Source of the DNA: Clostridia bacterium
GTDB lineage: Bacteria; Bacillota; Clostridia; Oscillospirales; Acutalibacteraceae
Direction of reading: 5' to 3'
DNA: 37,761 bases
Assembly (NCBI GenBank): GCA_017430145.1
Contig: JAFRNP010000134.1
Location: 1 to 37,761, forward strand
Shown here piece by piece: positions 1 through 33,880 of the stretch. The number at the start of each line of letters is the position of its first letter. Position 1 is the stretch's first letter. A model generated the notes under the pieces. It did not search any database. It was given only the letters and a program-made list of their open reading frames with translations, and was not told the DNA's origin. A program made the position numbers and the translations under genes.

Positions 1-462
1 GATAACAGCACCGTGACCGCGACGCGCACCTGCAAGAACGGGAACCATCCCGAAACCGAGACCGTGAGCACCGACTACACGGTTGTGACGCCCGCGCAGT
101 GCGGCGCTGCCGGTACGGGCAAATACACCACGCAGGCGTTTAATAACAGCGCGTTCACCGAGCAGACGAAGGAAGTGGAGATCACCGCCCTGACGCACGA
201 CTGGAACGAGCCGACCTACGTCTGGTCCGCCGATAACAGCACCGTGACCGCCACCCGTACCTGCAAGAACGGCGACCATCCCGAGACCGAGACCGTCGGC
301 ACTGATTACGCGGTCGTGACCCCGGCTGCCTGCGGCGTTGCCGGTACGGGCAAATACACCACGCAGGTGTTCTCTAACGGCGCGTTCACCGAGCAGACGA
401 AGGAAGTTGAGATCACGGCTTTGACGCACGTCTGGAGCACGCCGAGCTACACCTGGGGCGCC
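1..462 (+). repeat. 231-bp tandem coding repeat, two copies
   Basis: The 20-base word starting at base 1 recurs at 232, giving a period of 231 bp (77 codons). The two copies are nearly identical apart from scattered changes. A third, diverged copy follows from about 433 (WSTPSYTWGANNATC). The first copy may begin before the window. Confidence 0.85.
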
Positions 463-2196
463 AATAACGCCACCTGCACGGCAGAACGCCACTGCACGCG
501 CGACGGCTGCACGGCCGCGGAGACCGAAGAGGCGACTGTAACTTTCGAAGAGACTTTAGCGCCGAAATGCGGCGTGGCAGGCGAGACCACATACACGGCT
601 ACCTTCACAAATGAAGCGTTTGAAGATCAAACCGCAATTGTTCCGATCGCGGCACTGGAACATAACTGGTCTGTCGCATTCACCTGGACCGCAAAGGCGG
701 AGGGCGGCTATACCGTATCCGCCGTCCGTACCTGCAGCCTCGGCGACCATCCCGAGACGGCTGACCGCGTGGAGGTAAGCAGCGAGATCACCGTGCCCGC
801 CACCAGCGATCACGCGGGGGAGATCAAGTATACGGCGACCGCGTACTTCGGCGATGAGACCGCCGTCGATACGAAGACCGATGCGATCGAACAGCTGAAC
901 CCCGATTACGTATTCGTCCGCTTTGACTGGAACGCCGGTAACACTGCCGCCGACGTCGTCGTTTTGGATCAGAACAACGGCAACGCGGAGGTCCGGTTTG
1001 CCGCGGCCATGTCCGAAGACGCCCACACCGCCACCTGCACGGCAAACGCCTATACGGTGTATACCGCCACCTACGGTGAGCACAGCGACAGCAAGACCGT
1101 CACGGTCGAAGACTCCAAACTGCCGCACAGCTACGCGTTTGATTCCTTCATCTGGGCTGCGGACAACACTTCCGCCGATGTGAAGCTCGTCTGCGCGAAC
1201 TGCCCGGCTGAAACCACGGTGGAAGCGTCCATGTCCGAAGACGCCCACACCGCCACCTGCACGGCCGACGCCTACACGGTCTACACCGCGACTTACGGCG
1301 AGCACAGCGACAGCAAGACCGTCACCGTTGAAAACTCCAAACTGCCGCACAGCTACGCGTTTGATTCTTTCATCTGGGCAGCGGACAACACCTCCGCTGA
1401 TGTGAAGCTCGTCTGCGCGAACTGCCCGGCGGAGACCACGGCCGAAGCGACTATGTCCGAAGACGCGCATACCGCCACCTGCACGGCCGACGCCTATACG
1501 GTGTATACCGCCACCTACGGCGAGCACAGCGACAGCAAGACCGTCACCGTCGCCGGTACGGCGGGGCACACCCCGGCGGCCGCCGTGACGGAGCACGAGA
1601 CGCCTGCCACCTGCACCACGGCGGGCAGCTACGAGACCGTCGTCTACTGTACGGCCTGCGGAGAAGAGATCAGCCGCGAGACCCACACGGTCCCCGCCAA
1701 GGGCCACACCTGGGGCGCGTGGGAGACCGTGACGCCCGCGACCGAGGATGAAACCGGCCTTGAAAAGCGCGTCTGTACCGCCTGCGGCGAAGAGGAGACA
1801 AGGGTCCTGCCTGCGCTGGGCGAGATCGTGACGAAAACCGTCCGGTTTATAAACATCGCCCGTATGCACTACGAGATCGGCGACGAGGGCGGCGAGCCGT
1901 TCTACGTCTATGATTCCTCCGCGGTCACCTGGACCTCCGGCCGCCCGCTGCGCTTCAAAGCGGTCTGTTACTCGAACTTCGCCTATGACGAGATCGTGAT
2001 CTACGCCAACGGCACGGAGCTGACGCCGGACGAAGAGGGCTGGTACACGCTGCCGAAGAATAGTGAATTCGTCACCGTTACGGCGGTGGGCGCCATGACG
2101 GACGAGAGCGCGCCGAAGGGCAGGCTGACGTTCTGGGAGATGCTGCTGCGTCTCATCCGGCGGATCATTTCCTTCTTCACCTCCATCGGCAGATAA
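1..2196 (+). CDS. Repeat-rich surface/secreted protein, 3' part (5' end outside window)
   Basis: The reading frame is open from base 1, so the true start lies upstream; the GTG at 13 is an internal valine codon. The visible 731 codons are built of tandem modules. Two 77-residue units (231-bp period) carry a CKNG..HPETET core, and 74-residue units (222-bp period) carry DAHTATC, YGEHSDSK and CANCPAE. A cysteine-pair region follows (YCTACGEE, VCTACGEE). The last 21 residues or so form a basic, hydrophobic amphipathic helix (FWEMLLRLIRRIISFF...). Such modular proteins in Clostridia are normally extracellular; adhesion or a wall-associated stalk is inference. No catalytic motif is visible. The C-terminal helix resembles the tail of the convergent phosphoesterase downstream. 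A strong terminator follows the TAA. Confidence 0.85.
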   Translation, partial: DNSTVTATRTCKNGNHPETETVSTDYTVVTPAQCGAAGTGKYTTQAFNNSAFTEQTKEVEITALTHDWNEPTYVWSADNSTVTATRTCKNGDHPETETVGTDYAVVTPAACGVAGTGKYTTQVFSNGAFTEQTKEVEITALTHVWSTPSYTWGANNATCTAERHCTRDGCTAAETEEATVTFEETLAPKCGVAGETTYTATFTNEAFEDQTAIVPIAALEHNWSVAFTWTAKAEGGYTVSAVRTCSLGDHPETADRVEVSSEITVPATSDHAGEIKYTATAYFGDETAVDTKTDAIEQLNPDYVFVRFDWNAGNTAADVVVLDQNNGNAEVRFAAAMSEDAHTATCTANAYTVYTATYGEHSDSKTVTVEDSKLPHSYAFDSFIWAADNTSADVKLVCANCPAETTVEASMSEDAHTATCTADAYTVYTATYGEHSDSKTVTVENSKLPHSYAFDSFIWAADNTSADVKLVCANCPAETTAEATMSEDAHTATCTADAYTVYTATYGEHSDSKTVTVAGTAGHTPAAAVTEHETPATCTTAGSYETVVYCTACGEEISRETHTVPAKGHTWGAWETVTPATEDETGLEKRVCTACGEEETRVLPALGEIVTKTVRFINIARMHYEIGDEGGEPFYVYDSSAVTWTSGRPLRFKAVCYSNFAYDEIVIYANGTELTPDEEGWYTLPKNSEFVTVTAVGAMTDESAPKGRLTFWEMLLRLIRRIISFFTSIGR
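1009..1556 (+). repeat. 222-bp tandem coding repeat, two full copies and a part
   Basis: The word ATGTCCGAAGACGC recurs at 1009, 1231 and 1453, an exact 222-bp (74-codon) period. The third copy is cut at about 1550, where the sequence changes to a different cysteine-rich module. Near-identity at the DNA level points to recent expansion or homogenisation by recombination. Confidence 0.88.
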
Positions 2197-4834: not shown

Positions 4835-5527
4835 TTATTGTTCTTTTATCATTCCCTCAAATCCCAGCTCCCTGCAGGCGGCGGCGCATTTGCGGCAGGT
4901 ATAGCGGTAATACGCGTCCTGTTTTTCAGGGGGAACGTCCAGAACGGCGGCTGCCGTCAGGATCGCGGCGCGGGCGCTTTCGTCCTTTCCCTGCCGCCGG
5001 TAAAGACCGGCAAGGTTACAGTATGTTACGGCAAGGTCGCAGACGTCCCGGTACCGCCGCAAAAGCCCCGCGGCGCGCTCGTAATAGTATTCCGCCTTTT
5101 TGTCGTCGCCCTTTGCCGCATACGCGCCGGCCATATTGTTGTAAAGCCCAGCAAAGGCCCTGTCGCCCGCAGGGTAATACCGGTCGAACAAAACCTGCGC
5201 CCGGGCGTAAAGCTCGAGCGCGCGGTCCGTTTTTCCCGCGGCGCTGAATACGGTGGCGGCGTTCAGAACGATCATTGCCCCGGCGGCGTTTTTGATCTCC
5301 AGCTTATAAAGCAGGCCCAGCGCGTTTTCTGCTGCGGCCGTTGCCGCCGCAGGGGTCCCGTATTGCCGTTCAAAGCCCATCAGTTCATTGTATACGCTGA
5401 GCGCGCCGGCGTCGTCCGAAAGCGCCTTGTACCTGTTAAGCGCGTCTTCCAGCAGTGCCCGGGCGGAAGGGTAGTCCTGCCGGTCAAGAAGTTCGTCAAG
5501 GTCAGCGATCAGTTTTTCGATCTCCAT
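4835..5527 (-). CDS. Tetratricopeptide-repeat protein
   Basis: 230 residues, almost all helical, with TPR-like pairs: ALSVYNELMGFERQYG, RALELYARAQVLFDRYY, GLYNNMAGAYAAKGDDKKAE and TYCNLAGLYRRQGKDESA. There is no signal peptide or membrane segment, so it is cytosolic and probably a protein-binding scaffold. It starts 30 bp after the flavodiiron stop and ends 58 bp before the DUF4037 gene, suggesting one transcript. The upstream ribosome binding site is weak, consistent with dependence on upstream translation. Partnership with the DUF4037 protein is inferred from gene order. Confidence 0.8.
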   Translation of the reverse strand: MEIEKLIADLDELLDRQDYPSARALLEDALNRYKALSDDAGALSVYNELMGFERQYGTPAAATAAAENALGLLYKLEIKNAAGAMIVLNAATVFSAAGKTDRALELYARAQVLFDRYYPAGDRAFAGLYNNMAGAYAAKGDDKKAEYYYERAAGLLRRYRDVCDLAVTYCNLAGLYRRQGKDESARAAILTAAAVLDVPPEKQDAYYRYTCRKCAAACRELGFEGMIKEQ

Positions 5528-14203: not shown

Positions 14204-15547
14204 TTACCGGAAAAAGTATGCATGGTTGTCGGTTACGTAATCGAACGACGAACCGCCGGCGGAGACCAGGTACATGCCGAACCCGTAATAATCGAAGGAG
14301 CAGGCGCTGATCTCCCGGTACGCCCGGTACTGCGCCGGGGTCGCCTCCCGGTATTCGATCGTCAGGGTTTTGGCGTATTCGGAACCGGCGTCGGTATCGG
14401 TGATCTTTATCAGGTTCCCGCTGCCGTCATATTCCAGCGCGAATTCGTTTGTCGAATTGCCCAGCTGCGCGCTCTTCTCAGAAAGGGTGATCCCCGAGAC
14501 CCGGCCATCGCCGTCGTAGGTATAGGTCAGCGCCTTCCGGTCGCCGTCGCTGCCGTCCTTGGGCGCGACGGTACAGCCGGTCCGTCTGCCGTCGGCGTCG
14601 TAGGTGAAGCGGAATTCTGGAGACGTGACCATCCGCTGATGAAAGATCCGGCTGTATCTGCCGGCGTCGTCGTATTCCGCCGAAAGCCCGTTACCGCCGT
14701 TTGTGTTCTCTATTTCGCACGTGATGCCGATCAGCCGGCCCTCTTCGTCAAAGGTGCACCATTTGCGGCGCAGCTGCCGCTGACCGGTCATCAGATCGGT
14801 TTTGACAAGTTCACAAGAGGCGCCTGTCAGCCGGTCGTCTCTGTAATCGAAACTGAAAACGCCGGTCTCTTCGGCTTCGTCCGAGTAGTACGTCGTATTG
14901 TTTCCGCCGGTCAGTCTGCCCTCTTCGTCAAAGGTGAGCGTGATCTCGCGTCCGCCGGACATGCCGCCGCGGGTGGAGACGGACTGCCCGGTCCACGTCA
15001 GCGGGAAAGTGTTTTCTTCAAATTCGAAGCCGTCGGCGCTGATGGTATACGTAAACTTCGACGGGACGTAAAGGACCTGCCCGGTCTGAGCCGTCACGTC
15101 CGCCGGCGCGGCGTCCGGCGTCTGCCGGTTTTTAAGGATCAGGACCGTTGTGACGACGGCAGCCGTGATCAGTACCGCCGCAAGGATCAGTACGAGCACA
15201 AGGGGAAAACGGCGGCGGATAAACGGCGGCGGCCCGTAGACCGTCTGGACCCGCATGTCCGGCGGCGGGCCGTAAACATACTGCATCGGTCTGTTCGGGT
15301 CCCCGGCGGCCCAGTTGTTTCTGCCGCCGGGGATCCCGTTATTGCTGCCGCCGGGGATCCCGTTATTGCTGCCGCCGGGGATCCCGTTATTGCTGTTGCC
15401 GGGGATCCCGTTATTGCTGTTGCCGGGGGTCCCGTTATTACTGTTGCCGGGGGTCCCGTTATTGCTGTTGCCGGGGGTCCCGCAGACGGGGCAGACGCCG
15501 CCCGGCGGCAGCGGCGAACCGCAATTTCCGCAAAAGTGATTTTCCAT
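14204..15547 (-). CDS. Zinc-ribbon membrane protein with YD-like C-terminal repeats
   Basis: 447 residues. Residues 5-22 form a zinc ribbon (FCGNCG..CPVCG). They are followed by eight or so NSNNGTPG-type octapeptides (to about residue 95) and one transmembrane helix (about 141-163, LVLVLILAAVLITAAVVTTV). The remaining 280 residues are predicted outside the membrane and carry Rhs/YD-like beta motifs (FTYDADGRRTG, YTYDGDGRVSGI, LEYDGSGNLIKI). This matches zinc-ribbon-plus-TM proteins of Clostridia with varied extracellular domains. It may be a sensor or envelope factor, but there is no direct evidence. Its AAGGAGG is strong, and it begins 11 bp after the phosphoesterase stop, so the two are co-transcribed. 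Confidence 0.8.
   Translation of the reverse strand: MENHFCGNCGSPLPPGGVCPVCGTPGNSNNGTPGNSNNGTPGNSNNGIPGNSNNGIPGGSNNGIPGGSNNGIPGGRNNWAAGDPNRPMQYVYGPPPDMRVQTVYGPPPFIRRRFPLVLVLILAAVLITAAVVTTVLILKNRQTPDAAPADVTAQTGQVLYVPSKFTYTISADGFEFEENTFPLTWTGQSVSTRGGMSGGREITLTFDEEGRLTGGNNTTYYSDEAEETGVFSFDYRDDRLTGASCELVKTDLMTGQRQLRRKWCTFDEEGRLIGITCEIENTNGGNGLSAEYDDAGRYSRIFHQRMVTSPEFRFTYDADGRRTGCTVAPKDGSDGDRKALTYTYDGDGRVSGITLSEKSAQLGNSTNEFALEYDGSGNLIKITDTDAGSEYAKTLTIEYREATPAQYRAYREISACSFDYYGFGMYLVSAGGSSFDYVTDNHAYFFR
15315..15480 (-). repeat. 24-bp coding minisatellite
   Basis: A 24-bp unit coding for (N/G)SNNG(T/I)PG repeats at exact period: GTTATT recurs at 15338, 15362, 15386, 15410, 15434 and 15458. Unit-to-unit changes are few. 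It forms the linker between zinc ribbon and membrane helix and is likely to vary in copy number among strains. Confidence 0.88.
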
Positions 15548-27667: not shown

Positions 27668-27705
27668 ACGCCCCGACGTTTGCGGGCTTTGCACAAAGGG
27701 ATGCA

Positions 27706-27804
27706 CGCGATATGTCCCAACGGGACGCGTTATGCCCCTGCGGGACGCGATATGTTCCTACGGGATGCGATATGTCCCAATGGGACGCGATATGCCTGCG
27801 GGAC
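27706..27804 (+). repeat. 20-bp tandem repeat array (4 full copies plus a short one)
   Basis: Units CGCGATATGTCCCAACGGGA-like start at 27706, 27726, 27746, 27766 and 27786; the last has 18 bp. Each contains a small inverted repeat (TCCC..GGGA). The varied loop bases with kept stems (TCCCAACGGGA, CCCCTGCGGGA, TTCCTACGGGA) show some pairing-preserving change. Confidence 0.85.
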
Positions 27805-27844
27805 GCGAGGATTCAACCATTCACGCGTAAACGTTTGTGAACGC

Positions 27845-27960
27845 ATATCACATTGCGCAAAGCGCAATATATCGCATCTGCGAAGCAGATATATCGCATC
27901 TGCAGAGCAGATATATCACATTTGCGAAGCAAATATATCACATCGCCGCAAGGCGATATA
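27845..27960 (+). repeat. 22-bp hairpin repeat array before the SRAP gene
   Basis: Units of the form ATATATCGCATCTGCGAAGCAG lie at 27867, 27889 and 27911, flanked by variant units at 27845 and 27933. Each has an inverted repeat at its centre that differs between units but keeps pairing: TTGCGC/GCGCAA, CTGC/GCAG, TTGC/GCAA, TCGCC/GGCGA. I recall similar ATATATCGCAT/GCGAAGC strings between genes in gut Clostridia. There are no spacers, so it is not a CRISPR. Confidence 0.85.
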
Positions 27961-28569: not shown

Positions 28570-29414
28570 ATGCGGCAAAAAGCGTTGTCCTTTGCGGCGG
28601 GTTTCACTGCGGCGGCGGCCTCCGCACTGTATTTCGGCAGCTTTGAAAACCCGCTGGCGACGGTTGAAAAGGCGCGCGACCTTGTCCGGGCAACGACCAT
28701 GTGATCGAGTACAACGTGATCCACGACGTGTGCCTTCTGTCCGACGACGCCGGCGCCATCTATTCCGGCAGGCGCTGGGACTGGTACGGCAACGTGATCC
28801 GCTATAACGCGGTGTTCAACGTGGGCGCAGACGGACACGAGCCCACCGGCATCTATATGGACGACGCGCTCTCCGGCCAGACGATCTACGGCAATCTGGT
28901 GGTCAACGCGCCGGACGTGGGCATATCGCTTTGCGGCGGACGGGACCACGACGTGCGCAACAATATCGTCATCATCACCAATCAGGAGCCCTTTACCTAC
29001 GACCAGCGCGCCAGAGACGTGGCGCTGGCAGGCAAGGATTACGACGACGGCATGTGGAACGAGCTGAAAAGCTCCCCGTGGAAAACGGAGATCTGGCAAA
29101 AGGCCTATCCGCAGATGACGCGCTTTTCCGACGACTTCAGCCGGATCGACGACCCGGATTTCGTGCCGAACCCCGCCTGCAGCGTGGTCTCCGGCAACCT
29201 GACCGTCAACTTTGCGGGGGACCTGGGCAGTTTCAGCGAGGGGGCGCAGAAATACAGCGATATATCCGGCAACGCCTGCTTCCGGTTAAAGCAGATGCAG
29301 GATATCTTTACCGATTACAAAAACGGCGACTATTCGCTGCCGGAGACCTCCCTTGTGTTCGACGTGCTGCCGGATTTCGAGCCCCTGCCGATCGGCGAGA
29401 TGGGACGGTATTGA
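28570..29414 (+). pseudogene. Deletion-scarred beta-helix gene, paralogue of the next gene
   Basis: The first part (28570-28704) encodes a signal-like segment and FENPLATVEKARDLVRA, matching FDSPVATMEKARELVRA of the intact paralogue. It then runs out of frame and stops. From about 28690 a different frame (to 29414) encodes DHVIEYNVIHDVCLLSDDAG... through to PLPIGEMGRY, matching the paralogue's C-terminal 240 residues. Around 420 codons between the two are missing. Both joined regions share CGG/GGC at the joint, which fits a microhomology deletion. The C-terminal frame has no credible start of its own. Confidence 0.85.
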
Positions 29415-29440: not shown

Positions 29441-29526
29441 GTAAAAAGGAAAACAGAAAGGAAAACAGCGGGTATGCAAAGGCGGGTCGCCGTCTTTCCG
29501 GCAAATCCCGCTTAAGGGTGTGCGCA

Positions 29527-32136
29527 ATGGAGAAAAACAGGCGATTCTGGTTGTTGGGCCTTTTGCTGCTTCTGCTGTCTGCGGTAACGGCAGGGATCTA
29601 CAGCGTCGGGTATCTGAAATGGATCCTGCCGATCTACGCGGCGTCAATGGCGGCGATCTTTTTGGACGGCGCGCTGATGGGCGCGCTGCTGGCGGCGGCT
29701 GCAGACAAACCGAAAAAGCGGGTGCTGCTCGGGGCGCTGCTCGGCGGCGGGGTGGTGATCGGCGGCGTGTTTGTGATCTCGTATGTGATCAATATTCTAA
29801 TCTACCACGAGCGGGGCGCGGAACAATCGACGGTCGCGACGGCCTTGTTCGGCTTTGCCGCCGCGCTGTTCGGCACGCTGCGCCTGAAAAAGCTGACCGG
29901 CGCGAAATTTGTATGGAAGCCGCTTTTGGGCGTTCTTCTGAGCGTCTGTCTTCTTTGCTGCGGCATGATCAGCCTTTACCCGAAGACAAAGGACTACGTC
30001 TGTTCCCGCAGCAAGCGGATGGAAGCCGTTCCCACCGGGCTCAGTTCGTATACGGAAAAAGCGCCCGCGGCCATCCGGGAGGCGGACGTGTGGATCGCGC
30101 CGGACGGCAGCGACGGTAACGACGGCGCCTTTGACAGCCCGGTCGCGACGATGGAAAAAGCCCGCGAGCTTGTGCGGGCGATGGATAAAACGGATAAAAA
30201 AGAGATCACCGTAGCCGTGAAGGCGGGCGAATACCGGATCGGTGAACAGGTGTTTACGGAGGAGGACAGCGGCACGCCGGAATGCCCCGTGACCTGGTGC
30301 GCCGCCGGCAACGGCGAGGTGGTCTTAAACGGCGGCGTCACGCTGGACCCCGCGCTCTTCAAGACGGTGACGGACGAAAAGGCGCTCTCGCGGCTTTCGG
30401 AGAGCGCAAAACAGAACGTGGTGTGCCTCGATCTCGGCGGCCTCGGCGTGAGCGCCTCAGACTACGGCGAGCTGTACGCCATCGGCACCTACAACACCGC
30501 CCGGTATTACGACGGCGATTACGAGGGACCTATGTACTGCGAGCTGTTCGTCAACGACGCCCGCTGCGCCCTTGCCCGCTATCCGGACGCCGGGTGGCTC
30601 AAAACGAGCGAGCCGCTGCAGATCGGCAGGGAAGTGCCCGGCAATATCGAAAACGGCGATTTCGTGCGTAACCCTGCGGCGGAAATCTACAGCGTGGACA
30701 AAAAACTTGCCGACCGGATCAACGGCTGGGAGACGCTGGACGGCGTGTGGATGTTCGGCTTTTTCCAGACGAGCTGGGCGGACGCCTCCACCCCGATCGG
30801 CAGCTTTGATTATGAAAAACGGACGCTCGCCCCCAAATTCATCAGCGAATTCGGCGCGGTCAAGGACGCCCCCTACTATTTTTTCAACGTATTTGAAGAG
30901 CTGGACGCGCCCGGCGAGTGGTATCTGGACCGGGAGGCAGGGACCCTTTACCTGTACCCGCCCGAAGAACTTTCCGGCGCCGTGATCGACCTGACGCTGA
31001 CCACCGATCCCATCATCAACTGTAAAAACGTACACGACCTGACCTTTTCGGGCTTTACGGTCAAGGGGACCCGCGGGGACGCGATCACGGTCACCGGCGA
31101 GCGCTGTACGGTCTCGCACTGTCTCATTAAAAACGTGGGCGGCTCGGCGCTGACTATGAACGGCTACGACAACCTCGCCAGCGAAAACGAGATCACGCAC
31201 ACCGGCAAGGCCGGCATCACGGTCACCGGCGGCGACAGCGAAACGCTTACGCCCGGGAACTCCAGAGCGGACAACAACCTGATCCACGACTGGAGCGAGA
31301 TCTACTATACCTACCAGCCGGCGGTCACGCTCGGGGGCGTTGGCAACGTCTGTTCCCACAACGAGATCTATAACTGCCCGCATGAGGCGATCACCTACGG
31401 CGGCAACGACCATATCGTGGAATACAATCTGATCCACGACGTCTGCCTGCTTTCGGACGACGCGGGCGCGATCTATACCGGCCGAAGCTGGAGCATGTAC
31501 GGCAATACCGTGCGGTACAACGCGATCTATAACCTCGGCACCCCGGGCGAACACAACCCGCAGGGCATCTATATGGACGACGCGCTTGCCGGCCAGACGA
31601 TCTACGGGAACCTTTTGGTCAATATGCCCTGCTACGGACTGGAACTGGGCGGCGGCAGAGACCTGATCGTGCAGAACAACGTCCTGATCAATACGAAAGG
31701 CCACGCCGTCCATTACGACCAGCGCGCCATCGACTATATCCTGAACAACGGCTGGTTCTCACACAGCCCCGTTCTGTGGGAGCAGCTGGAGGCAAGCCCC
31801 TGGCGCAGCGACGTCTGGCAGAACGCCTACCCGCAGATGAACGGCCTGCACTATGATCCGGACCGCACGGACGATCCCATGTTCGCCCCGAACGCCGCAA
31901 ACGGCAAGGTCACCGGCAACCTGCTTGTGAACCAGAGAAACGAGCTCGGGCAGATCGACGAGAACCCGGCCCGCTTCAGCGAGATCTCCGGCAACGCGGT
32001 GTACACGTTCAGCGCGATGAAAAAGCTCTTTGTCGATCCCGAAAACGGCGACTATACGCTCAGAGACGACGCGCCGGTGTTTGACGAGATCCCGGACTTC
32101 GAGCCCCTGCCGCTCGGTGAGATCGGAAGATATTGA
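29527..32136 (+). CDS. Membrane-anchored right-handed beta-helix protein (pectate-lyase-like fold)
   Basis: 869 residues from the ATG at 29527; a GTG at 29518 is in frame but sits on the AAGGGTG ribosome binding site. Residues 5-160 hold about five hydrophobic segments. A long exported region follows: WIAPDGSDGNDGAFDSPVAT and MEKARELVRAM, the usual opening of parallel beta-helix glycan enzymes, a beta domain, then beta-helix coils rich in N (ITHTGKAGITVTGG, GNVCSHNEIYNCPHEAI, HIVEYNLIHD). The YMDDALAGQTIYGN segment is shared with the pseudogene upstream. It resembles uncharacterised GH-type helices such as GH141-like proteins; I cannot assign activity. Its last 39 codons are repeated at 33676. 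Confidence 0.82.
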   Translation: MEKNRRFWLLGLLLLLLSAVTAGIYSVGYLKWILPIYAASMAAIFLDGALMGALLAAAADKPKKRVLLGALLGGGVVIGGVFVISYVINILIYHERGAEQSTVATALFGFAAALFGTLRLKKLTGAKFVWKPLLGVLLSVCLLCCGMISLYPKTKDYVCSRSKRMEAVPTGLSSYTEKAPAAIREADVWIAPDGSDGNDGAFDSPVATMEKARELVRAMDKTDKKEITVAVKAGEYRIGEQVFTEEDSGTPECPVTWCAAGNGEVVLNGGVTLDPALFKTVTDEKALSRLSESAKQNVVCLDLGGLGVSASDYGELYAIGTYNTARYYDGDYEGPMYCELFVNDARCALARYPDAGWLKTSEPLQIGREVPGNIENGDFVRNPAAEIYSVDKKLADRINGWETLDGVWMFGFFQTSWADASTPIGSFDYEKRTLAPKFISEFGAVKDAPYYFFNVFEELDAPGEWYLDREAGTLYLYPPEELSGAVIDLTLTTDPIINCKNVHDLTFSGFTVKGTRGDAITVTGERCTVSHCLIKNVGGSALTMNGYDNLASENEITHTGKAGITVTGGDSETLTPGNSRADNNLIHDWSEIYYTYQPAVTLGGVGNVCSHNEIYNCPHEAITYGGNDHIVEYNLIHDVCLLSDDAGAIYTGRSWSMYGNTVRYNAIYNLGTPGEHNPQGIYMDDALAGQTIYGNLLVNMPCYGLELGGGRDLIVQNNVLINTKGHAVHYDQRAIDYILNNGWFSHSPVLWEQLEASPWRSDVWQNAYPQMNGLHYDPDRTDDPMFAPNAANGKVTGNLLVNQRNELGQIDENPARFSEISGNAVYTFSAMKKLFVDPENGDYTLRDDAPVFDEIPDFEPLPLGEIGRY

Positions 32137-32141
32137 TGTTT
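32017..32141 (+). repeat. 125-bp direct repeat, left copy (3' end of the beta-helix gene)
   Basis: Identical to 33676-33800 except at 32026 (C vs T) and 32037 (T vs C); the last 104 bases match perfectly. It covers the final 39 codons, the stop and five bases beyond. Homology stops abruptly at both ends. Confidence 0.97.
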
Positions 32142-32281
32142 TATTATTATTGATTGCGACACTTTCTAAAGAAATGATTTAGCAAAATTTAAAAATCTTT
32201 TCTTTTTTTACACAGAGAGATTGAGCAGTGTTTTTTCAAAAAATCAGTTTTAATAAGTATCTATAAAAATGGAGAGGAATA

Positions 32282-33043
32282 ATGAGAAAGCGTATTTATC
32301 AAATAATTGAAACCACAAAAGAAGACGATAAACTTAGCAAAATATATGATGTCTTGATGATGTTAGTTATTATTGCAAGTTTGATTCCTTTGGCGTTTAA
32401 ATCAGAAAATGCAGTTTTCTATTGGATTGATAAGGTAGCAGTTGTTATATTTATCCTTGATTATCTGCTTCGGCTTATTACTGCAGATTATAAATTGGAC
32501 AGAAAAGCTGTAGCTTTTATCCTTTATCCGTTTACTCCGATGGCAATTATCGATCTGATTTGCATTCTTCCTTCTCTACATATCATTCAGAGCGGTTTTA
32601 GAATTCTTAAAATATTCCGATTTTTCCGTACGCTACGGTTTTTCCGCATATTTAAGGCGATTCGTTATTCAAAAAGTATTAAATTAATAAGAAATGTTTT
32701 TATCCAGCAAAAGAAAACATTGTTAACTGTTGGATTGATAGCACTTTTTTATGTATTGATTTCTGCACTCGTTGTTTTTAATGTAGAACCTGACTCTTTT
32801 GAAAACATCTTTGATGCAATTTATTGGGCTACCGTTTCTTTAACTACAGTGGGTTATGGTGATATCTATCCGGTTACTACAATCGGCAGAATAGTGACGA
32901 TGGTATCTTCCATCTTTGGAATTGCCATTATCGCATTACCATCTGGTATTATTACAGCTGGTATTTTGGAAGAACTGAATAAGGATAAAGAAAAAACCAA
33001 AATGGAGGGCAATATCAGCAAGGATACATTTTCCGAAAGCTAA
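32282..33043 (+). CDS. Voltage-gated potassium-type ion channel
   Basis: 253 residues with six membrane helices. S4 (107-128) is a textbook voltage sensor with a basic residue at every third position: R107, K110, R113, R116, R119, R122, K125, R128. The pore loop has the K+ filter TTVGYGD (188-194), then the S6 helix (about 203-228, ending GIITAGILEEL). It is a plasma-membrane Kv-type channel. The short charged C-terminus has no ligand-binding domain. GGAGAGG precedes the ATG. It is AT-rich, unlike its neighbours, and stands 33 bp before the FtsK-like gene, with which it probably shares a transcript. Confidence 0.92.
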   Translation: MRKRIYQIIETTKEDDKLSKIYDVLMMLVIIASLIPLAFKSENAVFYWIDKVAVVIFILDYLLRLITADYKLDRKAVAFILYPFTPMAIIDLICILPSLHIIQSGFRILKIFRFFRTLRFFRIFKAIRYSKSIKLIRNVFIQQKKTLLTVGLIALFYVLISALVVFNVEPDSFENIFDAIYWATVSLTTVGYGDIYPVTTIGRIVTMVSSIFGIAIIALPSGIITAGILEELNKDKEKTKMEGNISKDTFSES

Positions 33044-33076
33044 CGGAATTTGTAGCATATTGATTGCACGTTTATT

Positions 33077-33664
33077 ATGATTGTAAAAACAGATTCGCAA
33101 TTAAAAAGCATTCTCCTAAAATCATACAAGACAGCTTCAGAACCCATTGATCATGAAGATCTTTATAAAAAAACTAAAAGAGAAATTGTTGATTCTTTTG
33201 CGTCATTTGGCGTTAACATCCGGTTGATAGATGCAAACTTATCTGATAATCGAATGACATTTTTTATAAGACCGGAAGCGGGCGTCAGAATATCACAAAT
33301 CAAACAAAGGCTTAATGATGTGTCCTTACTGCTCTGTATTGAACGTTTTAAAATGGAGATTCGAACAAACGAGGGCGTAATCGTATTAACTTCTGTTTTT
33401 TCGCAAGATAAAGATAAAAAAGAATCGTCTGATGATTTGTTGATTCGAGCAATTGAATTATTTGTTGAAAATCCGGAAAATGCTTCAATTAGCACTTTAC
33501 AGCGTTATCTGGGACTTGATTTTGCGAAAGCAGGACTACTAATGGATTCGCTTGAAGAACTTGGTATTGTGGGGCCATCAAATGGGAGCAGACCTCGGAC
33601 GGTTTTGATTTCCAACAAACAGTGGTATAGTATTAGATCCTGTGTGAATCAAAACGAAAAATGA
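33077..33664 (+). CDS. Motor-less FtsK-like protein (alpha-like plus gamma-like domains)
   Basis: 195 residues. Residues 37-106 resemble the FtsK/SpoIIIE alpha domain: FASFGVNIRLIDA, then PEAGVRISQIKQRLNDVSLLL. Residues 119-178 match the gamma winged helix: LLIRAIELFVENPENASIST, LQRYLGLDFAKAGLLMDSLE, GIVGPSNGSRPRTVL. The beta RecA ATPase that should lie between them is absent; there is no Walker A or B, and the joint is a charged linker (QDKDKKESSDD). In FtsK, gamma reads KOPS DNA, so this could be a DNA-binding regulator rather than a pump. No ribosome binding site is obvious. Its stop overlaps the ATG of the duplicated tail. Confidence 0.7.
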   Translation: MIVKTDSQLKSILLKSYKTASEPIDHEDLYKKTKREIVDSFASFGVNIRLIDANLSDNRMTFFIRPEAGVRISQIKQRLNDVSLLLCIERFKMEIRTNEGVIVLTSVFSQDKDKKESSDDLLIRAIELFVENPENASISTLQRYLGLDFAKAGLLMDSLEELGIVGPSNGSRPRTVLISNKQWYSIRSCVNQNEK

Positions 33665-33795
33665 ATCTGAATAACATGAAAAAGTTCTTTGTCGACCCCG
33701 AAAACGGCGACTATACGCTCAGAGACGACGCGCCGGTGTTTGACGAGATCCCGGACTTCGAGCCCCTGCCGCTCGGTGAGATCGGAAGATATTGA
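33661..33795 (+). pseudogene. Duplicated tail of the beta-helix gene
   Basis: A 44-codon frame starting at an ATGA overlap with the FtsK-like stop. After five novel codons (MNLNN) it reproduces the last 39 codons of the beta-helix protein (MKKFFVDPENGDY to PLPLGEIGRY), with one amino-acid change (L to F). It is presumably the original 3' end left behind by the island. Confidence 0.85.
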
Positions 33796-33800
33796 TGTTT
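33676..33800 (+). repeat. 125-bp direct repeat, right copy
   Basis: Matches 32017-32141 at 123 of 125 positions, offset 1,659 bp. The genuine downstream terminators of the beta-helix gene follow this copy. Confidence 0.97.
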
Positions 33801-33813
33801 ACGAACGCAAAAA

Positions 33814-33880
33814 GGCGGCGCCCGGAAGGGTGCCGCCCTTTGCATGCGTTTTACGGGATCCGGGCCGGATCCTTTTTTTT
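33814..33880 (+). terminator. Tandem terminators
   Basis: First a GGCGGC/GCCGCC hairpin (33814-33837) followed by CTTTG. Then GGATCC (33856-33861) pairs with GGATCC (33867-33872) and runs into T8 (33873-33880). The second is a textbook rho-independent terminator. Confidence 0.85.

What the first reader, a model, noticed from the sequence alone, without database searches (positions are those of the whole stretch)
32017..33800. AT-rich two-gene island bracketed by a duplicated 3' gene end
Seen: 125-bp direct repeats (123 identical) bound 1,534 bp of strikingly AT-rich DNA. Both repeats encode the last 39 codons and stop of the beta-helix gene, and the GC-type terminators follow only the right copy. 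Known: integrative elements often target a gene's 3' end and carry a replacement of it. Inference: this is a compact mobile cargo, or a remnant without an integrase, that entered while keeping the host gene intact. It could excise by recombination between the repeats.
Basis: partly seen in the sequence, partly recalled or inferred. Interest (0 to 1): 0.85.

Follow-up and report, generated by a model that had tools for sequence, protein, structure and literature searches.

The report
Foreign channel cassette duplicating gene's end
A small piece of foreign, phage-style DNA carrying an ion-channel gene and a motorless relative of the DNA pump FtsK has inserted at the end of a gut-type bacterium's gene and left that gene's end doubled, which may mark a little-known kind of infection-sensing pair.

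Summary
In detail: 125-bp direct repeats (123 identical) bracket 1,534 bp at 33% GC in a 59% GC contig. The repeat is 39 codons, a stop and 5 bp; a strong terminator hairpin follows only the right copy. The last 104 bp are exact; both mismatches lie in the first 21 bp. The island holds a Kv-type K+ channel and a 195-aa protein with FtsK alpha and gamma domains but no motor.

The channel family is horizontally mobile and phage-borne: relatives lie on 61 IMG/VR contigs, often directly after a cI-like repressor or before a recombinase, and its tree crosses families and orders. Two other channel loci are bracketed by a duplicated host-gene piece (comM; tRNA-Ser); relatives have one copy. For the window itself no empty site was found, and there is no integrase.

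A channel overlapping an FtsK-gamma gene recurs in a Prevotella contig behind a cI-like repressor. I read the pair as RexAB-like in logic, not in homology. Foreign insertion is well supported; how the gene end was duplicated, excision, and a defence role are inferred or untested. New variant of a known kind.

The parts
29518..32136 (+). Host gene: 872-aa right-handed beta-helix protein; its 3' end is the left repeat copy
   Evidence: ORF; PF13229 Beta_helix E 4e-13, GH141_M below cut-off
32017..32141 (+). Left direct repeat: last 39 codons, stop, 5 bp; in frame with the complete gene
32142..33675 (.). AT-rich island, 1,534 bp, GC 0.332
32282..33043 (+). K+ channel, 253 aa, voltage-sensor plus pore (TTVGYGD filter, regularly spaced arginines before the pore)
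   Evidence: PF00520 E 8e-30, PF07885 E 1e-16; alignment A1 of 12; best solved-structure match KCNQ2 4.5e-24
33077..33664 (+). ORF2, 195 aa: FtsK_alpha (13-94) + FtsK_gamma (117-178), no motor; starts 33 bp after the channel's stop codon
   Evidence: gamma 70% identical to own genome's FtsK, alpha 24% over 49 residues
33661..33795 (+). Short ORF starting in an ATGA overlap with the ORF2 stop and running in frame into the displaced gene end; possibly the start of a donor ORF fused to the host tail (inference)
33676..33800 (+). Right direct repeat: displaced 3' end of the beta-helix gene (33676-33696 with 2 mismatches, 33697-33800 exact)
33814..33837 (+). Terminator-like hairpin that follows only the right copy
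   Evidence: -30.7 kcal/mol for 33800-33850, z -4.4

Best explanation
A single, recent insertion of foreign phage-type DNA at the 3' end of the beta-helix gene. SHOWN: foreign composition; a channel gene of a family that moves between orders and is common in phage lysogeny regions; a 104-bp exact second copy of the host gene end on the far side; the coding sequence left complete but cut off from its terminator. INFERRED: the copy was made when the DNA went in, by recombination or break repair that used the gene end on one side and a short near-match (ATGAAAAAG.TCTTTGTCGA) on the other, rather than by a resident integrase. INFERRED: the two genes work as a pair, ORF2 being a DNA-binding cytoplasmic partner (it keeps the FtsK DNA-reading domain and a ring domain but no motor) and the channel the membrane effector, in the manner of lambda RexA/RexB: a DNA or FtsK-related signal during infection or damage opens the channel and halts the cell.
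For: Repeat, GC, frame, terminator. Channel mobility: found in 7 of 26 genus genomes at E<=1e-3, 53 of 394 order genomes at E<=1e-30, 33 of 391 class genomes at E<=1e-60, own included in each; the window's channel groups 100/100 with one of the same genus, two of other families of the order and one of another order; 61 viral contigs at E<=1e-3. Of 138 distinct channels at 42% identity or more, 19 have directly upstream an ORF of one BLASTP cluster of cI/LexA-like repressors (6 of the 19 checked with Pfam) and 11 a recombinase-like ORF directly downstream (1 checked with Pfam), 6 both. Bracketing: of 72 channel loci three (window, comM locus L135, tRNA-Ser locus L186) are bracketed; single comM in the 6 congeners fetched (of 10 searched), single tRNA-Ser in both congeners of L186. 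Pairing: a gamma-domain ORF appears in 2 of 213 channel loci, both times the channel's direct neighbour (window; Prevotella L302, ATGA overlap, PF09397 E 7e-17, behind an S24 repressor). Against a ready-made 3' end: no other genus match over 60 bp exceeds 79%; both mismatches in the first 21 of 125 positions, chance 0.027, noticed after the fact.
Against: No empty site for this locus; no donor found; no full-length ORF2 relative in 300 family, 394 order or 26 genus genomes apart from the window's own, nor in pattern-based scans of genome contigs and viral contigs. Bracketing is rare: 0 of 141 further channel loci (some of them repeats of earlier loci or distant channels); counting their other repeats, the chance of the two unascertained cases is 0.09. 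The tRNA-Ser case looks like ordinary integrase attachment, and in a congener (G705, L185) the related cassette also lies behind a tRNA 3'-half remnant. Channels in general are not near tRNAs (2 of 141 within 400 bp, control 0.96%). Nearly all channel loci have no gamma partner. The gamma profile was built with ORF2 and the L302 stretch among its rows. Nothing here tests defence; PADLOC gives no hit for either gene. In P. putida, RexB activation did not depolarise the membrane (PMC12894663, passages). ORF2 lacks an arginine that most FtsKs have, though 4 genus members lack it too.
Confidence: 0.4

Rival explanations
1. Remnant of an integrative element or prophage that used a site-specific integrase at the gene's 3' end. 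The repeats are attL/attR, the left copy being the element's replacement of the gene end; the integrase and the rest were deleted, or the integrase acts in trans.
For: A complete gene on one side and a displaced end with terminator on the other is the usual layout (recalled); 11 of 138 channels lie directly before a recombinase-like ORF; L186 has a channel beside a 53-bp duplicated tRNA-Ser 3' half, congeners have the unbroken tRNA, and congener G705 has the related cassette behind another tRNA 3'-half remnant (L185).
Against: No integrase in 1.5 kb; the target belongs to a fast-diverging paralogue family (no match over 60 bp above 79% elsewhere in the genus), an unlikely integrase target with a 104-bp exact core; mismatches clustered at one edge.
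Confidence: 0.36
2. Single-crossover (Campbell-type) integration of a circle that already carried a 104-125-bp piece of this gene.
For: Gives exactly a direct repeat around cargo; HFIR, circularisation and single crossing-over are described for small non-replicative DNA (PMC3240628, abstract); the comM case duplicates several hundred bp.
Against: Needs a circle joined earlier to this species' own gene end; none was found.
Confidence: 0.12
3. Assembly or binning artefact: AT-rich DNA of another organism joined through the repeat.
For: Fragmented assembly (180 contigs, 86.6% complete); no reads available.
Against: Joins through a repeat still need real DNA in which AT-rich sequence touches this gene end on both sides (argument); ORF2's gamma falls with FtsK of this genus, on a long branch, and the channel's closest relative found is in the genus (78%).
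Confidence: 0.08
4. The channel is a K+ homeostasis or host-fitness gene and the FtsK-like gene an unrelated neighbour; the two do not work together (compatible with any way of insertion).
For: In 211 of 213 channel loci no gamma ORF is found.
Against: 33-bp spacing here, ATGA overlap in Prevotella; both gamma ORFs found are direct neighbours of the channel.
Confidence: 0.4

Closest known systems
Lambda RexA/RexB and RexAB-type pairs (Sbash gp30/gp31, P. putida RexABpp)
   Same: Adjacent genes for a DNA-binding soluble protein and a membrane ion channel, in lysogeny context beside a cI-like repressor (true of L302 and of part of the channel family; PMC12894663 and PMC6426596, passages only)
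   Different: Channel is Kv-type, not RexB-like; partner has FtsK gamma, not DUF4747; no phage exclusion shown; the window island lacks the repressor
FtsK/SpoIIIE DNA translocase
   Same: ORF2 has alpha and gamma domains; gamma 70% identical to the own genome's FtsK
   Different: No motor match; alpha strongly diverged; AT-rich
Phage proteins with FtsK gamma away from the translocase (Gordonia phage Kiko gp52; Bacillus phages Sam46/Sam112)
   Same: Gamma domain used in mobile DNA (PMC8190038, one passage)
   Different: No channel neighbour annotated beside Kiko gp52; alpha part not matched there
Integrative elements and genomic islands in gene 3' ends or tRNA genes (recalled)
   Same: Direct repeat of a gene end brackets foreign cargo and leaves a complete gene
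   Different: No integrase, very small, long exact repeat in a poorly conserved gene
Homology-facilitated illegitimate recombination
   Same: Insertion of small DNA by homology at one end and illegitimate joining at the other (PMC3240628, abstract)
   Different: Not demonstrated here; donor unknown

Membership tests
Integrase-borne element in a gene 3' end | Direct repeat of the gene end flanking the insert, gene kept whole | tested here: met
Integrase-borne element in a gene 3' end | Integrase/recombinase gene inside the repeats | tested here: not met
   Only channel and ORF2 give family matches in 1,534 bp
Integrase-borne element in a gene 3' end | Empty site with one copy in relatives | tested here: inconclusive
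   No orthologous locus recognised in 25 other genus genomes; met for the other two bracketed loci
Integrase-borne element in a gene 3' end | Excision or circular form | not testable with these tools
   No reads, no DNA
RexAB-type exclusion system | RexA/DUF4747-type partner | tested here: not met
   ORF2 passes cut-offs only for FtsK_alpha and FtsK_gamma
RexAB-type exclusion system | Membrane ion channel encoded next to a DNA-binding protein | tested here: met
   DNA binding of ORF2 is inferred from the gamma domain
RexAB-type exclusion system | Location beside the cI repressor of a prophage | tested here: not met
   Not in the window; met in L302 and for 19 of 138 channel relatives, one of which is a LexA
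RexAB-type exclusion system | Phage exclusion phenotype | not testable with these tools
   needs the bench
FtsK/SpoIIIE translocase | RecA-type motor domain | tested here: not met
   no such match in ORF2
FtsK/SpoIIIE translocase | Gamma winged-helix domain | tested here: met
   PF09397 E 1.7e-17; PDB FtsK gamma matches
Voltage-gated K+ channel | Ion_trans fold with TVGYGD filter and charged S4 | tested here: met
   conduction and gating not tested

The most novel reading that the evidence does not exclude
The island is a minimal, integrase-free form of a new two-part abortive system: a motorless FtsK alpha-gamma protein that reads the host's FtsK/chromosome-terminus signals (or joins and poisons the FtsK ring) gates a Kv-type channel, and such channel cassettes spread by insertions that duplicate the end of a host gene.
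Probability: 0.12. Interest if true: 0.82.

Novelty: new variant of a known kind. Interest (0 to 1): 0.5.

Why it matters
A Kv-type channel family turns out to be a recurrent passenger of phage lysogeny regions, often directly behind the repressor, the place where lambda keeps rexAB; what it does there is open and directly testable. The pairing with FtsK gamma in two phyla gives a concrete sensor-effector hypothesis. The locus is also a clean case of foreign DNA entering a gene end without an integrase while leaving the coding sequence whole. In the paper library held, no paper has 'FtsK gamma' together with 'potassium channel', and none has 'potassium channel', 'prophage' and 'superinfection' together; a looser search listed only unrelated papers among its best 10 of 2,126. 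These are narrow word searches.

Tried and rejected
ORF2 relatives: pattern scans of viral contigs and genome contigs found none; plasmid and phage protein searches found no place covering 80% of it. Of the phage hits to the gamma domain that I opened, L083 and L085 are full-length FtsK-size frames, L084 starts at a contig end, and the Gordonia protein (L086) matches in the gamma part only. Transposon: no inverted repeats at the island ends. tRNA in the window: none. Empty site from MBL-gene orthologues (G008, G009, G011, G015): the neighbouring genes show no match to the helix gene, so not informative. Loss of the gamma arginine as a sign of lost binding: dropped, because 4 genus FtsKs also lack it. 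Enrichment of bracketing repeats: 0.027 from the first 72 loci, 0.09 once repeats of the 141 later loci are counted, so no significance is claimed. Nearness of channels to tRNAs: not enriched. Relatives of the Prevotella gamma-HIRAN protein: none in viral contigs, none covering 80% in plasmids or phages. Its HIRAN match is just below the cut-off (24.0 against 24.7).
Full report
WHAT IS THERE. The window is a whole contig (C120, 37,761 bp) of a fragmented assembly of 3.03 Mb. A family-mate stretch (L141, G122) is identical to a public record of 'Candidatus Ruminococcus equi' (L275), placed in Clostridia, Oscillospiraceae by NCBI; that the host is a clostridial gut-type bacterium is inference from this. 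Direct repeats 32017-32141 and 33676-33800 match at 123 of 125 positions. The repeat is the last 39 codons and stop of a beta-helix gene (29518-32136) plus 5 bp. Between them lie 1,534 bp with GC 0.332; none of 665 other windows of that size falls below 0.509. A strong hairpin follows only the right copy.

FINER ANATOMY. Both mismatches lie in the first 21 bp of the repeat; the following 104 bp are exact (chance of that clustering 0.027, computed after seeing it). In front of the right copy the ORF2 stop overlaps an ATG (ATGA), giving a reading MNLNNMKKFFVDPENG..., an operon-like ORF start that runs in frame into the displaced gene tail. I infer that the first bases of the 'right copy' may be incoming DNA with a chance near-match, and that the true duplication is about 104 bp. 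In the 26 genus genomes no other match longer than 60 bp exceeds 79% (95 bp, the neighbouring paralogue); shorter ones reach 88% over 56 bp and 92% over 26 bp. The exact duplication is thus recent and specific to this locus.

THE GENES. The first is a complete K+ channel (Ion_trans E 8e-30; TTVGYGD filter and arginines shared by 12 aligned relatives). The second, ORF2, matches FtsK_alpha (29.1 bits) and FtsK_gamma (63.3 bits) and no motor domain. Its gamma domain is 70% identical to that of the own genome's FtsK and falls in the larger FtsK clade of this genus (92/87, on a long branch, one other-genus row inside), although its third-position GC is 0.29. No other genome gave a full-length match: of 300 family genomes 280 match at E<=1e-3, but the best outside the own genome is 1e-24 and the listed rows cover the FtsK gamma part (capped list); of 26 genus genomes 21 match, again gamma only outside the own; of 394 order genomes only the own passes 1e-27.

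THE CHANNEL MOVES. It is found in 7 of 26 genus genomes, 53 of 394 in the order (E<=1e-30) and 33 of 391 in the class (E<=1e-60), own included. The window's channel groups with 100/100 support with a congener, two genomes of other families and one of another order. A scan found 61 viral contigs with relatives, 40 of them distinct at 42% identity or more with a complete 3' end, and Dulem virus 33 carries one behind an HTH gene, with an integrase a few genes downstream. Among 138 distinct channels (97 from genomes, 40 from IMG/VR, one phage record), 91 have some ORF directly upstream and 86 directly downstream; 19 of the upstream ORFs form one BLASTP cluster of HTH/S24 repressors, and 11 of the downstream ORFs are recombinase-like (8 in a tyrosine-integrase cluster, 3 named serine recombinases by eye); 6 channels have both. 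Pfam was run on 6 of the 19 (all repressor-type HTH, one of them LexA) and 1 of the 11. The channel is therefore a recurrent passenger of phage lysogeny regions.

BRACKETING BY HOST-GENE PIECES. In 72 channel loci (733 kb counted; 59 with 1.5 kb or more on both sides) four direct-repeat pairs of at least 50 bp, 94% identity and 0.7-4 kb gap exist, and three bracket the channel: the window; L135, where the channel and a 4Fe-4S protein gene sit between a truncated, internally deleted 5' copy of a comM-type Mg-chelatase gene and a full-length copy; and L186, where the channel with DUF3791/DUF3990 genes sits between a tRNA-Ser(CGA) and a 53-bp copy of its 3' half. The full-length comM copy of L135 is itself split by one in-frame stop, unlike five relatives. 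In 6 congeners fetched, of 10 searched, comM is single (0.36 to 1.9 kb of upstream DNA seen), and the tRNA is single in both congeners of L186. In one of these, G705, the related cassette lies elsewhere, behind another tRNA 3'-half remnant (L185 about 5307-5384). Among 141 further loci, partly repeats of earlier ones or distant channels, none is bracketed. With all loci the chance of the two unascertained cases is 0.09. So insertion with a duplicated gene piece is well supported at these loci, but I cannot claim that the channel is specially prone to it.

HOW IT GOT IN. Two readings remain close. (a) Duplication made at insertion, by homology-facilitated or other illegitimate recombination, or repair of a staggered break: favoured by the lack of any integrase, by the exactness of the copy in a fast-diverging gene, and by the edge-clustered mismatches. 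(b) A decayed integrase element attached at the gene end: favoured by the layout, by the usual company of this channel, and by the tRNA-Ser cases. Without an empty site or donor I put (a) slightly ahead; the G705 remnant, seen on re-checking, moved the odds from 0.42/0.33 to 0.40/0.36. An assembly artefact is unlikely, since joining through the repeat still needs AT-rich DNA next to this gene end in some real molecule, but reads were not available.

WHAT IT MAY DO. The main clue is a Prevotella contig (L302, JAFLSF010000020.1): S24 repressor, then a 202-aa protein with FtsK_gamma (E 7e-17) and a HIRAN-like part just under the cut-off, overlapping by ATGA a channel of the same kind. In 213 channel loci a gamma profile hits twice, both times the immediate neighbour of the channel; the profile included these two sequences, but tblastn with ORF2 alone also found L302, and nothing else, among the 141 loci of that search (E 1.7e-5). 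Lambda has cI-rexA-rexB in this order; RexA is taken to be a DNA-binding sensor and RexB an ion channel (PMC12894663, passages; the similar Sbash gp30/gp31 in PMC6426596, passages). I therefore propose that channel plus gamma-domain protein work like RexAB. They are not members of that family: the partner is not DUF4747 and the channel is Kv-like. In P. putida the RexB effector harmed the membrane without measurable depolarisation, so even the model system is not settled. That gamma domains read KOPS/SRS octamers and touch XerD is recalled; that the alpha domain lets ORF2 enter FtsK rings is speculation. None of this is tested here, and 211 of 213 channel loci show no such partner.

VERDICT. 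Observation confirmed; interpretation partly supported. A foreign phage-type cargo inserted at a gene end, with an exact duplication of that end; new variant of a known kind, with an interesting and testable two-gene pairing.

Noticed in passing
window 28570-29414: A second beta-helix paralogue directly upstream of the target gene looks like a relic: a short start resembling the family's N-terminal helix region is followed at once by the C-terminal part, as after a large internal deletion (by eye); its end is 71% identical to the repeat.
   Followed up: partly
window 27705-27944: Tandem arrays (20/40-bp unit ACGCGATATGTCCCAACGGG, then a 22-bp unit ATATATCACATCTGCGAAGCAG).
   Followed up: no
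window 1-1668: Long tandem repeats of 231 and 222 bp at the contig start, as in a repetitive surface protein.
   Followed up: no
window 15279-15506: About seven 24-bp units (GTTATTGCTGCCGCCGGGGATCCC).
   Followed up: no
L302 4486-6714 (Prevotella sp. HAN020): S24 repressor, FtsK-gamma/HIRAN-like protein with a hydrophobic start, and Kv channel in a row, a cI-rexA-rexB-like order.
   Followed up: partly
L135 5824-9744: comM-type gene duplicated around a channel plus 4Fe-4S protein cargo; the left copy has an internal deletion and the right copy an in-frame stop.
   Followed up: partly
L186 2609-4575; L185 about 5307-5384: tRNA-Ser(CGA) 3' half duplicated around a channel + DUF3791 + DUF3990 cargo with no integrase; in a congener a related channel cassette lies behind a tRNA 3'-half remnant.
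   Followed up: partly
L191, L195, L200, L203, L217, L290 and others: In one subgroup the channel's neighbour ORFs on either side are related to each other and look like membrane proteins (cluster of 16 ORFs); all are genome loci, none viral.
   Followed up: no
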